Below, piece after piece: positions 14,109 to 40,680 of a stretch of 44,452 bases of DNA (positions are counted from its first letter, which is position 1; each line of letters opens with the position of its first letter). Made by a program: the position numbers and the translations under genes. Below the pieces are notes generated by a model, which was not told the origin of the DNA, made no database searches, and worked only from the letters and a program-made list of their open reading frames with translations. The DNA lies in NCBI GenBank assembly GCA_027336365.1, contig DAHWFY010000005.1, forward strand, positions 1 to 44,452, given 5' to 3'. The stretch comes from Bacillota bacterium. Its GTDB lineage: Bacteria; Bacillota; Bacilli; Alicyclobacillales; Alicyclobacillaceae.

Positions 14109-14723
14109 TTACCATTCACTGAGCAACTCCAGATTCCGATGCACACTGCAGTGTTCAGCACGTATAATGGCTTCTATTCGAACACAAGCCGAATCCACCA
14201 CATCGTTGACCACCACATAGTTGTATTCCTTCATCCGTTGTAACTCATGGCGAGCCGCGCCAAATCGTCGTTGGAACGACTCGTCCGTCTCACTGCCGCG
14301 TCCCAAAATGCGGGACTTGAGTTCCGTGGCCGATGGGGGAATAAGAAAAATAAATACACCTTCTGGATATGTATGTCGAACCTGCATCGCACCTTGAATA
14401 TCAATCTCCAGAAGTACGTCAACGCCTCGTTCCAGCTTTTCCTCGACAAAGTTTCTTGGCGTCCCATAAAAATTCCCGTATACCTCAGCCCATTCAAGAA
14501 GTTGATTGTAAGCTATCATGGCGTGAAATTCCTCTGGACTCTTAAAAAAGTAATTAACGCCATGTTGTTCGCCTTCCCGCGGCAACCGGGTGGTGGCTGA
14601 CACCGACAAGGACAGGTCTGGTTGACGCGCCATCAAAGCTTGACACACCGTTCCCTTGCCTGCCCCGGACGGGCCACTGAGTACGAACAAGATTCCCCGT
14701 TTGCCCTCTGTCATAAGACTCAA
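14109..14723 (-). CDS. gmk: Guanylate kinase
   Basis: [43 protein letters not shown]. Confidence 0.95.
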
Positions 14724-14986
14724 TCCTCGTCTTCAATAATTTGTTCCTTTGCCGTGAGCCGATGAGCCACGGTTTCCGGTTGAACTGCAGACAATATCAC
14801 GTGGTCACTGTCCATGATGATGACCGCTCGAGTGCGTCGGCCATAAGTCGCATCAATCAGCATGCCCCGGTCTCTTGCTTCCTGAATGATACGTTTGATG
14901 GGGGCAGACTCCGGACTGACGATGGAAATGATTCGGTTGGCCGACACGATGTTGCCAAATCCGATATTAATCAACTTAATATTCAC
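14720..14986 (-). CDS. remA: Extracellular matrix regulator RemA / DUF370
   Basis: [77 protein letters not shown]. Confidence 0.93.
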
Positions 14987-15149
14987 TCGCCAGCCTCCTT
15001 CTAGAGGTCATAATAACTCACCCTTCGCATTCTCACCTTATCTTAGCTCAAAACCATACTCTCTGCTGCACAGAGACTCACCTGCATGAAAAGACCCATC
15101 TTGCTCCATTTTGGACTTGTTCCCACAGTTGTTCAATCAATGTATTATA

Positions 15150-15389
15150 CAAAGGTATTATACCAAAAGCATTCGCCTCACGGCGAACGCCTTATATCCC
15201 CAGCGCTGAAGCGTGTTCAGCACTATTTTGTGGAACTTGTGGGTAATGCTGAGCGCTGAAACACGGGGTTTTACGGTGAAAATCCTTAGCGCCAACCCCA
15301 ACAATCCAGAGGTTGGCGCTAAGCCCCCATGCCCCTAACGGGGCACAATATGATGGTGAACATAGCCGGACGGTTATTTTCCCATCAAA
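15150..15389 (+). ncRNA. Highly structured non-coding intergenic region ending in family-iii core copy A (candidate omegaRNA-like / IS200-605 right-end remnant)
   Basis: No convincing ORF. Stems: TTCGCC/GGCGAA (15173-15188), TTAGCGCCAACC/GGTTGGCGCTAA (15286-15297/15311-15322), TGCCCC/GGGGCA, ATAGCCG-GA-CGGTTAT; ends CCCATCAAA. The core (15317-15389) recurs at 39790-39860. Confidence 0.5.
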
Positions 15390-15415
15390 GAGACAGGAAT
15401 GTGCACTACGGGGTT

Positions 15416-18214
15416 CTAATGGGAGGCAACCTTGGTTTTGAGAGCTTTGCGACCTGCCCGGCGCAACGACAAGGCCAGGGTAGGGACCAGTGCTGCCAGA
15501 ACGGTCAATCCCCATTCGAAGGAGGATGGTGTGATGGTACTGAATACTTTTGTCAACACAGGTACGTACAGGGTTAGAAGAAATAAGCCTAGAGAACTCA
15601 GTACAGCCAGCCAGAGCCAGACGTTTTCAAACAAGTTCCTTTTCAATATTCCCCCATCTATGCTACGGGAGTCAAAAACAAGAACAAACTGCGCTAAAGT
15701 CAAAGTGGTATACGCCAGCGTCTGGGCTCTCGTCAGGTTTCTGGGATCCGTTTGTAACGCCCAAACAAACACTGCCAGAGTAACCATTCCGACAAGAAAC
15801 CCTCGGCTGAGAATCTTAACCGTGAAACTGGGGGAAAAGATTCCTTCAGTGACGTTCCGGGGAGGTCGCTGCATAATATCCTTTTCGGCTGGGTCAACCC
15901 CCAACGCGATGGCTGGTAGCCCATCAGTCACCAAATTCACCCACAAAATTTGAATTGGCAATAAGGGCAATGGCAACCCCACCAACATGGCGACAAACAT
16001 TGTGACAATCTCACCCACGTTTGAGGCAAGCAGGTATCGAATGAATTTCTTAATGTTGTCGTAAATACCCCGTCCTTCTTCCACTGCAGCAACAATCGTG
16101 GCAAAGTTATCGTCTGCCAAGATCAAGGCTGAGGCTTCTTTCGCCACGTCCGTGCCACCCAACCCCATGGCAATGCCAATGTCGGCCTGTTTAATGGCAG
16201 GTGCATCGTTGACCCCATCTCCCGTCATCGCGACAACCTCACCTTGGGTCTGTAAGGCCTTCACAATTCGCAGTTTGTGTTCAGGGGTTACACGCGCGTA
16301 CACGTAAGTGTTCACAGCCTCTTTTGCCAAGATGTCATCCTCCATCAGATCCAAATCCCGACCCGTTAAGACCCGTCCCCCCTCTGGCAGAATCTGCAAT
16401 TGACGTGCAATGGCGGTGGCCGTCAACTGATGGTCTCCGGTAATCATGACTGTCCGAATTCCGGCTCGACGACAGCTTTCAATCGCTTCAAACACCCCTT
16501 CCCGAGGTGGATCCATCATCCCCACGAGCCCCACAAAAACCAGACAAGTTTCCGGCTGCGGTTCTGCCTTTGCCGTCTCGATACTGGTAAACTTTCGATA
16601 TGCAAAGGCTAAATTGCGAAGGGCACCCGCGGCCATTTGCTGGTTGGCTTGGAGTACATTTTTACGCACCCCTGCAGATAGCAGATCCTCTCGACCATGG
16701 CTGATAAAGTGAGTTGCCCGGTCAATCAACACTTCCGGGGCCCCCTTCACCAAAAGAAACACATCTTTCCCTTTACGAACCAGCACAGACATGAGCTTAC
16801 GCTCTGAATCAAAGGGAATTTCATCAACGCGCTGAAACTCCTCGTTCCAATCTGTGTACTTTCCCTTTCTGGCCAGCAACAGCAGGGCGGCCTCAGTGGG
16901 ATCCCCAGTGAACCCCCAACGAGGATTCCCATCCTCACCATGTACTCGTTCCATCTGAGCGTTATTGCAGACGGCCCCAATCTGCAATAGCCATTTCAGG
17001 TGAGTCCTCCGCAAGGGTTGCACCGGTCGTTGGTTGTAAATGAACTCTCCTTCATCACTATCACCGCTGCCGGTTACCCCGTACCACTCCCCATCCGCCC
17101 ACACCTGTTGAACAGTCATGCGGTTTTGTGTTAGAGTGCCCGTTTTATCCGAACAGATGACGGTGGCACAGCCCAGGGTTTCCACGGAGGGCAAGTTCCG
17201 AACGATGGCATGGCGCTTAATCATCCGCTGTACACCCAACGCCAAGGCGATGGTGACAATGGCAGGCAACCCTTCAGGAATGGCGGCAACTGCCAGACTG
17301 ACACCAGCCAAAAACATCTCGTACACTTTGTGTCCATGCAAAACTCCCGTGACAACCACCAGCAAGGTAATCGTCAATGCCACCCAGACCAGTGCCTTAC
17401 CTAACTGGTTCAAGCGTCTTTGTAAAGGAGTCAAGGTTTCTTCTGATTCCTCCATCAGTCCAGCAATTTTACCCATTTCCGTTGCCATTCCCGTAGCGCT
17501 AACCAAGGCCTCACTTTTCCCCCTGGTGACCATCGTCCCCATGTACACCATGTTGATTCTGTCCCCCAACGGTGCATCCGGTGTCGCCTGGAAAGAGGCA
17601 TTTTTACTCACAGGAACCGACTCTCCGGTTAAGGAAGACTCTTCCACTTCCATGCCCTGCACCCATAAAAGTCTTCCATCTGCTGGAACTCGGTCTCCCC
17701 CCTCCAACAAAATAATATCCCCAGGCACCAGTTCTCGGGCGGGAATACTTTTAACCTGCCCATCACGGCGGACTCTTGCCACGGGAGCAATCAATTCCTT
17801 AAGTGCCGCCAGAGACCGTTCCGCCCGTACCTCCTGAACAAAACCCAGGATGCCGTTGAGGATGATGATGGCAATGATGGTCACGGCATCGGTGTATTCA
17901 CTCAACAAGCCAGAGATGAGAGTTGCCGCCAACAGTACTAGAATCATGAAATCACGAAACTGGTTGAAGAAGATGGTTAACAGAGAGACCCTGCGCCCTT
18001 CTGTGAGCAAGTTTGCGCCGAATTTTTCCCGTCGCATCGAGGCCTGCTCATCACTCAATCCCGCAGTGGATACTTCGAGTGAATCGAGACATGCCGTCGC
18101 GGACAGCGCGTGCCAGTTGTTTTCCACTGGAGCCACCCTTTCGCCTCGCTTGTGTTTGTCTCGTAATTCGTATGCTTGTACGTCGGTAAACATGTCCAAA
18201 CCAGACACGCCCAT
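15416..18214 (-). CDS. Cation-translocating P-type ATPase (SERCA-type, calcium)
   Basis: ICSDKTGTLTQNRMT, MITGDHQLTA, AMTGDGVNDAPAIKQADIGIAMG, N-terminal cation ATPase domain (LSATACLDSLEVSTAGLSDEQA). Confidence 0.93.
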   Translation of the reverse strand: MGVSGLDMFTDVQAYELRDKHKRGERVAPVENNWHALSATACLDSLEVSTAGLSDEQASMRREKFGANLLTEGRRVSLLTIFFNQFRDFMILVLLAATLISGLLSEYTDAVTIIAIIILNGILGFVQEVRAERSLAALKELIAPVARVRRDGQVKSIPARELVPGDIILLEGGDRVPADGRLLWVQGMEVEESSLTGESVPVSKNASFQATPDAPLGDRINMVYMGTMVTRGKSEALVSATGMATEMGKIAGLMEESEETLTPLQRRLNQLGKALVWVALTITLLVVVTGVLHGHKVYEMFLAGVSLAVAAIPEGLPAIVTIALALGVQRMIKRHAIVRNLPSVETLGCATVICSDKTGTLTQNRMTVQQVWADGEWYGVTGSGDSDEGEFIYNQRPVQPLRRTHLKWLLQIGAVCNNAQMERVHGEDGNPRWGFTGDPTEAALLLLARKGKYTDWNEEFQRVDEIPFDSERKLMSVLVRKGKDVFLLVKGAPEVLIDRATHFISHGREDLLSAGVRKNVLQANQQMAAGALRNLAFAYRKFTSIETAKAEPQPETCLVFVGLVGMMDPPREGVFEAIESCRRAGIRTVMITGDHQLTATAIARQLQILPEGGRVLTGRDLDLMEDDILAKEAVNTYVYARVTPEHKLRIVKALQTQGEVVAMTGDGVNDAPAIKQADIGIAMGLGGTDVAKEASALILADDNFATIVAAVEEGRGIYDNIKKFIRYLLASNVGEIVTMFVAMLVGLPLPLLPIQILWVNLVTDGLPAIALGVDPAEKDIMQRPPRNVTEGIFSPSFTVKILSRGFLVGMVTLAVFVWALQTDPRNLTRAQTLAYTTLTLAQFVLVFDSRSIDGGILKRNLFENVWLWLAVLSSLGLFLLTLYVPVLTKVFSTITPSSFEWGLTVLAALVPTLALSLRRAGRKALKTKVASH

Positions 18215-32108: not shown

Positions 32109-32185
32109 TTAAAGGCAGTAGATGAACCGACTTAACCATAGCAGTTCCCTTTTCCCTCGTCAAGTCATCGCTGCTCGGTTCGATT

Positions 32186-32268
32186 TTTGCTGAGAAAATA
32201 ACCGTCCGATTATTTTCATCGTAATTTTGTGTCTCATTTTGTGTCCCGTCAGAGGCATGTGGGTTGAG
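32186..32268 (-). repeat. Family-iii element copy C (diverged, with a ~13-nt internal duplication)
   Basis: On minus: CTCAACCCACATGCCTCTGACGGGACACAAAATGAGACACAAAATTACGATGAAAATAATCGGACGGTTATTTTCTCAGCAAA; aligns with copy A (CTAAGCCCCCATGCCCCTAACGGGGCACAATATGATGGTGAACATAGCCGGACGGTTATTTTCCCATCAAA). Confidence 0.65.
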
Positions 32269-39269: not shown

Positions 39270-39275
39270 CTTACC

Positions 39276-39345
39276 CTAATCAGTAAATACAATAACGTGG
39301 ATTTACATTCCCTGCTGGTGCCGCTATCAGCGGCATGACGGTCTA
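39276..39345 (+). repeat. ~70-bp double-hairpin interspersed element, copy 4
   Basis: CTAATCAGTAAATACAATAACGTGGATTTACATTCCCTGCTGGTGCCGCTATCAGCGGCATGACGGTCTA. Confidence 0.9.
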
Positions 39346-39370
39346 TTTTTATAAATTCATCCATTGCAAA

Positions 39371-39789: not shown

Positions 39790-39860
39790 CGCTAAACCCC
39801 CGTGCCCCTGCGGGGCACAAGATTATGGTGAAAATAACCGGACGGCTATTCCCCATCAAA
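39790..39860 (+). repeat. Family-iii element copy B (omegaRNA-3'-end / IS200-605 right-end-like core)
   Basis: CGCTAAACCCCCGTGCCCCTGCGGGGCACAAGATTATGGTGAAAATAACCGGACGGCTATTCCCCATCAAA; aligns along its whole length with 15317-15389. Confidence 0.75.
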
Positions 39861-40680
39861 CCTGCACGTGCTTTTGCATGCGGTGAATGGCGGCCTTTTC
39901 CAAGCGGGAGACTTGAGCTTGTGAAATTCCAATTTCCTCAGCAACCTCCATTTGTGTTTTTCCCTCGTAGAATCTCATAGATAGAATTTTCCGTTCCCTA
40001 TCTGTAAGCTTACGCATCGCTTCTCGAATCGCAATCTCCTCTATCCACGACTTGTCCATATTTTTGTCGTCATGGATTTGGTCCATCACGTAAATTGGGT
40101 CCCCCCCATCATGATAAATGGGTTCGAACAGGGATACCGGGTCCTGAATGGCGTCCAAGGCAAACACCACTTCTTCTTTCGGCAGCGACAATTCCTCTGA
40201 GATTTCTTGTACCGTGGGTTCTCGTAAATTCCGATTGGTCAACTGATCTCTGACTTGAAGAGCCTTGTAAGCAATATCTCGCAAGGACCGACTGACGCGA
40301 ATGGGATTATTGTCACGTAAATATCTGCGAATTTCGCCGATAATCATGGGCACGGCGTAAGTTGAGAAGCGAACGTTTTGTCCCAAATCGAAGTTATCGA
40401 TGGCCTTCATGAGTCCAATGCACCCTACCTGAAACAAATCATCCACAAATTCTCCACGATTGTTAAACCTCTGAATGACAGACAATACCAGACGCAAATT
40501 ACCGTTTACCAACTTTTCCCGAGCCGCCCCGTCTCCTTGCTGTAATTGTGCGAACAATTGACGCATTTCCGCGTTGTTCAACACAGGCAGTTGAGAAGTA
40601 TTGACACCACAAATCTCTACCTTGTTGCGCTTCACGGCCGTTCCCCCTCGTGCTGACTGACGACGCAGCGAGCCAACCAA
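39856..40680 (-). CDS. sigG: Sporulation sigma factor SigG
   Basis: KRNKVEICGVNTSQLPVLNNAEMRQLFAQLQQGDGAAREKLVNGNLRLVLSVIQRF..., ISQAQVSRLEKAAIHRM. Confidence 0.95.
   Translation of the reverse strand: MVGSLRRQSARGGTAVKRNKVEICGVNTSQLPVLNNAEMRQLFAQLQQGDGAAREKLVNGNLRLVLSVIQRFNNRGEFVDDLFQVGCIGLMKAIDNFDLGQNVRFSTYAVPMIIGEIRRYLRDNNPIRVSRSLRDIAYKALQVRDQLTNRNLREPTVQEISEELSLPKEEVVFALDAIQDPVSLFEPIYHDGGDPIYVMDQIHDDKNMDKSWIEEIAIREAMRKLTDRERKILSMRFYEGKTQMEVAEEIGISQAQVSRLEKAAIHRMQKHVQV

What the first reader, a model, noticed from the sequence alone, without database searches (positions are those of the whole stretch)
15150..15389. ~240-nt structured non-coding region around copy A, at the expected yicC locus
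Seen: upstream of core A lie TTCGCC/GGCGAA, several CAGCGCTGAA / TTCAGCACT / GCTGAGCGCTGAAAC segments able to pair with one another, and a perfect 12-bp stem TTAGCGCCAACC/GGTTGGCGCTAA. Together with the core this could be one folded RNA of omegaRNA-like size. No convincing protein is encoded. Established: Bacilli often have yloC (YicC family) next to remA; it is absent here. Inference: this is the most complete copy of family iii.
Basis: partly seen in the sequence, partly recalled or inferred. Interest (0 to 1): 0.6.

Follow-up and report, generated by a model that had tools for sequence, protein, structure and literature searches.

The report
Miniature jumping-element ends, not guide RNA
The 240-base stretch between two housekeeping genes is not one RNA gene but the scar of a lost gene (yicC) where end fragments of two families of RNA-guided jumping elements have landed, one of them a roughly 70-base mobile miniature of an IS110 element that is scattered in about 25 copies over this genome.

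Summary
The region is a mosaic at the yloB-remA junction of an Alicyclobacillaceae MAG: (1) 15108-15146(-): 13 codons matching the extreme C-terminus of YicC, a fossil of the missing gene. (2) 15162-15282: degenerate terminal hairpins of IS200/IS605 (tnpA/tnpB) elements. (3) 15285-15323: a private perfect 13-bp stem. (4) 15319-15390 ("core A"): one of about 25 genomic copies of a 70-nt repeat made of the left end (about 45 nt) fused to the right end (about 25 nt) of IS110 elements of related genera, without recombinase and most of the bridge-RNA region. In a same-genus genome three orthologous sites lack the repeat, one precisely (CCCTAAA|CC), so it has moved. No IS110 of this subfamily was found in the 83%-complete host assembly. 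The whole 240 nt recurs nowhere as a unit, Rfam is silent, and base pairs of the 70-nt family do not covary beyond shuffles. Best reading: a bridge-RNA-dependent IS110 miniature beside IS605 end debris. An omegaRNA-type single RNA is not supported.

The parts
15108..15146 (-). fossil of the yicC 3' end, NTLIEQLWEQVQN (last codons of YicC, upstream of remA)
   Evidence: tblastn of relatives' YicC (E 0.004-0.009 in a 440-nt region), expected strand and place; 0 of 200 shuffles reach the score
15162..15282 (-). degenerate IS200/IS605 terminal sequence: left-end inner half 15162-15209, 51-nt insertion 15210-15260 containing the right-end tip motif AGCATTACCCA (minus strand, 15240-15250), left-end outer half 15261-15282
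   Evidence: covariance model R2, E 1.4e-11; same repeat is the left end of tnpA/tnpB elements; tip motif
15285..15323 (.). perfect 13-bp inverted repeat CTTAGCGCCAACC/GGTTGGCGCTAAG, not repeated elsewhere in this genome; its last 5 bases are the first 5 of the core
   Evidence: the repeat finder; no match of its own in the genome search
15319..15390 (+). miniature IS110 ('core A'): left-end part about 15319-15363, right-end part about 15364-15390
   Evidence: covariance model R1, E 2.4e-20; halves match the ends of IS110 elements
39792..39861 (+). second copy of the miniature IS110 in the window; absent at the orthologous site of G001
32185..32268 (-). third copy of the miniature IS110 in the window (with a 13-nt internal insertion); absent at the orthologous site of G001
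14720..14986 (-). remA (context gene downstream of the lost yicC)
   Evidence: ORF list; remA found next to yloB in relatives by tblastn
15416..18214 (-). yloB-type P-type ATPase (context gene; its stop codon is 26 nt from the core)
   Evidence: ORF list; relatives fetched by protein

Best explanation
The region is debris and insertions at the scar of a deleted yicC. Two kinds of end sequence lie there. The first (15162-15282) is a decayed mosaic of IS200/IS605 left- and right-end hairpins. The second (15319-15390) is a complete, about 70-bp miniature IS110 element: left end (45 nt, including what looks like the 5' stem-loop of the bridge RNA) joined to right end (25 nt), with the recombinase gene and most of the guide-RNA region deleted. 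The miniature most likely moved in trans: an IS110 recombinase carrying the bridge RNA of a full-length relative cut the miniature's two ends, joined them in a circle, and inserted it at sites resembling nCT-AAA, leaving the AA(A) core on both sides. SHOWN: homology of both halves to IS110 ends; multi-copy dispersal in intergenic DNA; three empty sites in a same-genus genome, one of them precise with AA(A) at both edges. INFERRED: transposition in trans, the circle, dependence on a bridge RNA, and loss of the helper from this lineage. At this locus it probably does nothing beyond folding into hairpins at the 3' side of yloB.
For: Region resolves into separate dispersed repeats. About 25 genomic copies of the core and about 11 of the IS605 left end in this genome. 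The left-end repeat lies directly upstream of Y1 transposase (PF01797) and TnpB (PF01385/PF07282/PF12323) genes, next to target TTAT/TTAC. The two halves of the core are the first and last stretches of IS110 elements (PF01548, PF02371, NF033542) in L198, L199 and L200. In G010, near-identical 1.54-kb IS110 copies with unrelated flanks end in the same architecture, and the LE and RE pieces occur only as pairs about 1.5 kb apart, never fused, so they belong to the IS and are not its target. Same-genus G001 lacks the core at three orthologous sites; one junction reads CCTCCCTAAA|CC against CCTCCCTAAA-[core]-AA-CCC. All 24 copies examined lie between, or reach only a few bases into, predicted ORFs. 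IS110 non-coding regions carry a copy of their own left-flank sequence, as expected for guide RNAs (4 of 40,320 permutations as good). Literature: bridge RNA and recombinase act in trans on short donor ends (PMC11208160; PMC11187229).
Against: No IS110 of this subfamily was found in the host assembly, so the helper is hypothetical; the assembly is only 83% complete. Left flanks of the copies share little beyond CT-AAA and a weak C at -2, whereas one guide RNA should favour a longer target. Solo copies in several genera share a central GCCG..CGGC hairpin that the intact IS110s examined lack, so the miniature is an old family of its own rather than a fresh deletion. The yloB-remA site itself has no precise empty-site alignment, because the sister's spacer is too diverged.
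Confidence: 0.78

Rival explanations
1. The core is an independent REP-like palindrome, and the IS110 elements of related genera inserted into its loop, so that its two halves flank them without being their ends, as IS1111 does in QMITE2 of Coxiella.
For: IS1111 splits a REP inside QMITE2 in Coxiella (PMC5896051); ISEc11 of the IS1111 family uses the target GTGAAAATACTG (PMC11187229), which resembles GGTGAAAATAACCGG in the core; solo copies have a tidy central hairpin.
Against: G010 carries the LE and RE pieces only as pairs round the IS, with unrelated flanks outside and no fused copy. The matches in G007, G018 and G008 all lie at IS110 units, with no solo core. Tandem IS110 junctions repeat the whole left piece each time.
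Confidence: 0.14
2. The 240 nt make one functional structured RNA (omegaRNA-like or another guide RNA) transcribed from the plus strand.
For: Strong folding on the plus strand; a promoter-like site at 15120-15148(+); the pieces are related to ends of RNA-guided elements.
Against: The unit is not conserved and splits into separately dispersed repeats; the minus strand folds better; no tnpB/iscB-like gene at the locus; absent from the sister I2511; no covariation signal in the core; no Rfam match.
Confidence: 0.04
3. The hairpins now serve the host as a bidirectional terminator or mRNA 3'-end stabiliser between yloB and the remA operon, whatever their origin.
For: The core lies 26 nt after the yloB stop; several stable hairpins follow on the minus strand; in co-directional gene pairs the core is antisense in 8 of 9 cases (predicted ORFs).
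Against: No T-run follows the strong stems on the minus strand; the only two terminator-like hits are weak and lie elsewhere; no excess covariation.
Confidence: 0.1

Closest known systems
IS110 family insertion sequences with bridge RNA / seekRNA (IS621, ISEc21)
   Same: Left end about 45 nt with a GC stem-loop, right end with CTATTTTCnCAT; the same ends flank DEDD/Transposase_20 recombinase genes in relatives.
   Different: Here only the two ends remain (about 70 bp); no recombinase and no target- or donor-binding loops.
[quoted passage not shown]
   Same: Short, non-coding, dispersed, intergenic, precise empty site, ends shared with a full IS.
   Different: The MITE paper read here that names a parent points to another family (MITEPye1 from IS1182, PMC11578231); IS110-type elements lack classical terminal inverted repeats; the core is unusually short.
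IS200/IS605 terminal hairpins and tnp-less derivatives (PATE-like)
   Same: 15162-15282 matches the left end of tnpA/tnpB elements, with the right-end tip motif AGCATTACCCA inside.
   Different: Degenerate, with a 51-nt insertion; no TTAT/TTAC target left; not a complete LE+RE pair.
REP / QMITE2 palindromes targeted by IS1111 (Coxiella burnetii, PMC5896051)
   Same: Palindromic intergenic repeats connected with IS110/IS1111 elements.
   Different: Here the repeat most likely consists of the IS ends themselves rather than being the target.

Membership tests
omegaRNA (TnpB/IscB guide RNA) | encoded at the right end, overlapping or next to tnpB/iscB | tested here: not met
   no tnpB/iscB reading frame at the locus; the IS605 piece is mostly left end, which lies upstream of tnpA in intact elements
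omegaRNA (TnpB/IscB guide RNA) | conserved covarying scaffold across loci | tested here: not met
   the 240-nt unit is unique; 70-nt family not above shuffles; no Rfam match
omegaRNA (TnpB/IscB guide RNA) | expressed as an RNA bound by TnpB/IscB | not testable with these tools
   needs RNA-seq or pull-down
IS110 element (autonomous) | DEDD + Transposase_20 recombinase gene | tested here: not met
   none at the locus, none of this subfamily in the assembly at E <= 1e-20
IS110-derived miniature element | both ends homologous to those of a full IS110 | tested here: met
   L198, L199, L200 and the G010 copies
IS110-derived miniature element | mobility: presence/absence at orthologous sites with a clean junction | tested here: met
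   three empty sites in G001, one precise; not resolvable at the 15319 copy itself
IS110-derived miniature element | movement by recombinase plus bridge RNA in trans | not testable with these tools
   needs an excision/insertion assay
REP-like target palindrome of IS110 | uninterrupted copies in genomes whose IS110s are flanked by its halves | tested here: not met
   no fused copy in G010; model matches in G007, G018 and G008 all lie at IS110 units
IS200/IS605 element | Y1 transposase and/or TnpB between LE and RE | tested here: not met
   only end sequences here; intact elements elsewhere
YicC family gene at this locus | YicC_N (PF03755) coding sequence | tested here: not met
   absent from the genome and from G001; 13-codon C-terminal fossil only

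The most novel reading that the evidence does not exclude
IS110 recombinases and their bridge RNAs are parasitised by ~70-bp miniature elements that keep only the donor ends (and the 5' stem-loop of the guide RNA); such miniatures have spread through several genera and two families of the order as a lasting, guide-RNA-dependent MITE family.
Probability: 0.45. Interest if true: 0.65.

Novelty: new variant of a known kind. Interest (0 to 1): 0.42.

Why it matters
Bridge-RNA recombinases were shown in 2024 to be programmable and to accept short donors with the guide supplied in trans (PMC11208160, PMC11187229). A natural ~70-bp donor family would be evolution's own example of that arrangement and would help define a minimal natural donor. 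It also warns that strongly folding intergenic DNA in IS-rich genomes is readily mistaken for a new guide RNA. Four searches of the open-access library turned up no report of an IS110-derived miniature among the titles, abstracts and passages read; subscription journals and ISfinder could not be searched, so the novelty is provisional.

Tried and rejected
Rfam scan at gathering thresholds: nothing. One RNA of 240 nt: rejected after the region split into separately dispersed repeats. Core as part of the IS605 elements: rejected, the core model finds no strong match in those loci. Core as IS256 terminal repeat, because core-like units lie about 100 nt before IS256 genes in genus g4: not favoured, since no core-like unit was found at the far end of the one IS256 locus checked (L208) and g4 also has units without an IS256 gene directly after them (L204 first copy, L207); a hitchhiking insertion in the IS256 leader is more likely. 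Core as IS110 target: considered seriously because of the Coxiella case, not favoured because of G010, G007 and the tandem junctions. Covariation of the core: not significant against shuffles. A precise empty site for the 15319 copy in I2511: spacer too diverged.

Full report
WHAT WAS CLAIMED AND WHAT IS THERE. The sequence features are as described: a TTCGCC/GGCGAA hairpin, mutually pairing CAGCGCTGAA-type segments, and a perfect stem that is 13 bp (15285-15297 with 15311-15323). The 240 nt fold much better than shuffles on the plus strand (-91.9 kcal/mol, z -5.05) and on the minus strand (-103.4, z -6.46). Strength on both strands is what inverted-repeat DNA gives. No credible ORF is present and nothing in the window reaches an Rfam gathering score.

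IT IS A MOSAIC. Searching the own genome (a 3.14-Mb, 366-contig, 83%-complete assembly, G000) with 15130-15430 found no second copy of the whole. The 24 matches (the query itself included) fall into separate query blocks: about 15160-15213, 15240-15276 and 15311-15401. Covariance models of two blocks gave about 25 genomic copies of the core (R1, 71 positions) and about 11 of the other (R2, 77 positions). The 13-bp stem is private to this locus; its last five bases are the first five of the core.

BLOCK 15162-15282: IS200/IS605 ENDS. In relatives the R2 repeat lies immediately upstream of a Y1 transposase (PF01797) and TnpB (PF01385, PF07282, PF12323; NF040570), on the opposite strand. Aligned left ends read TTAT|CAAATGCGCCGTAAAACCCC..hairpin..GGCGTTCGCC..GGCGAAT, with target TTAT or TTAC. 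In several genomes contigs break about 75-110 nt from the repeat, as expected for the end of a multi-copy element. The window copy has a 51-nt insertion in the middle that contains, on the minus strand, AGCATTACCCA, the right-end tip of the related element in L178/L179. It is a degenerate mosaic of left and right ends, not an intact element.

BLOCK 15319-15390: A MINIATURE IS110. The core model has matches in 18 of 61 genomes searched, which include two families of the order. In G007, G018 and G008 the first about 45 nt of the core lead into an IS110 element whose recombinase has PF01548 and PF02371 (tested for G007 and G008) and passes the IS110 RNA-guided transposase model NF033542 (tested for G008 and G010). 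In G007 and G018 the element ends in CTATTTTCTCATCAAA, the last part of the core. In L198 two 405-bp units without the recombinase gene follow in tandem, and each junction repeats the complete left piece. A more distant IS110 in G010 (43% identical recombinase), in near-identical copies with unrelated flanks, has ends of the same architecture (TAAGACATCCATG-hairpin-..ATGAAAATG and ..CCATTTTCTCAGTAG); in that genome the pieces occur only as LE/RE pairs about 1.5 kb apart and never fused. The halves of the core are therefore most simply the ends of the IS, not its target.

THE CORE HAS MOVED. In same-genus G001, the orthologues of the window copies 39792-39861 and 32185-32268 and of the copy at G000:C359:6417-6485 lack the core. 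The last is precise: G001 reads CCTCCCTAAA|CC where this genome has CCTCCCTAAA-[core]-AA-CCC, so CTAAA was in the target and AA(A) is present at both edges. All 24 copies examined lie between predicted ORFs or reach only a few bases into one (ORF-based). Flank information content drops to near background outside CTAAAC..CATCAAA, with a weak C at -2. A recombinase of this subfamily was not found in this genome or in G001; G001 has one IS110 left-end relic.

GUIDE-RNA SIGNATURE IN THE FULL ELEMENTS. The non-coding region of the intact IS110s has a 5' GC stem-loop (the one the core keeps), then a stem-loop with a variable centre, then a conserved part. In that conserved part each element carries a copy of the bases at its own left insertion edge (CTCTAAAC, CTTCTAAAC, CACTAATC, GCCCTAAAC, GACTAAAT); only 4 of 40,320 permutations do as well. 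The test was devised after seeing the pattern, so it is suggestive only. It fits a target guide of the bridge/seekRNA kind (PMC11208160, PMC11187229).

NO SUPPORT FOR AN RNA FUNCTION OF THE CORE. On 33 copies, 85.7% of cells pair, but shuffles reach the observed values in 34, 100, 23, 87 and 148 of 500 trials for the five measures. The alignment was fitted to part of this structure, which would favour it, and still no clear covariation signal stands out.

THE yicC LOCUS. YicC (PF03755) is absent from this genome and G001 but present in all 15 other relatives. In most of the Alicyclobacillus loci measured the yloB-remA gap is about 1.0-1.3 kb and holds yicC; in I2511, A. montanus and SP_1 it is 241-283 bp. 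Here, 15108-15146 on the minus strand encodes NTLIEQLWEQVQN, matching the last codons of YicC (..TIVEQLREQVQNIE) in the right strand and place; 0 of 200 shuffles reach the score. The IS-derived blocks lie next to this fossil, at the scar. Whether the insertions caused the deletion or came later cannot be told.

VERDICT. The structure is real, the single-RNA reading is not supported, and the most interesting part is the 70-bp IS110 miniature. Its movement by a recombinase-bridge RNA complex in trans is inferred from known biochemistry and awaits a direct assay.

Noticed in passing
window 15108-15146 (-): Fossil of the yicC 3' end (NTLIEQLWEQVQN) next to the repeats; yicC was not found in this genome or in the same-genus G001.
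   Followed up: yes
L198 3470-4288 (G007): Two tandem 405-bp IS110 derivatives without recombinase but with the whole non-coding guide region: larger miniatures that keep the guide RNA.
   Followed up: partly
L198, L199, L200, L201, L203: IS110 non-coding regions contain an 8-9 nt copy of the element's own left insertion edge, varying with it between elements (candidate target guide).
   Followed up: partly
L204, L206, L208 (genus g4): IS256-type elements (PF00872) carry a core-like unit in the leader about 100 nt before the transposase gene; left flank GATATCATGTGT shared among several G030 copies.
   Followed up: partly
L101-L121 (own-genome copies): Where both flanking predicted genes run the same way, the core lies antisense to them in 8 of 9 cases.
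   Followed up: no
window 39273-39347: Another dispersed repeat of about 70 nt with several copies in this genome (L107, L113, L121, L122, L127) and in G001.
   Followed up: no
L004 about 1003-1036: A 34-nt repeat with more than 20 copies, the best at 94-97% identity, in G001.
   Followed up: no
L158 and L142 (G052): Two copies of the core share about 60 nt of upstream sequence; in L158 the flanks form an inverted repeat (TCTAGGGGAACTGTGA.. / ..CACAGTTCCCTAGGGGA), as if the core had inserted into a larger MITE.
   Followed up: no
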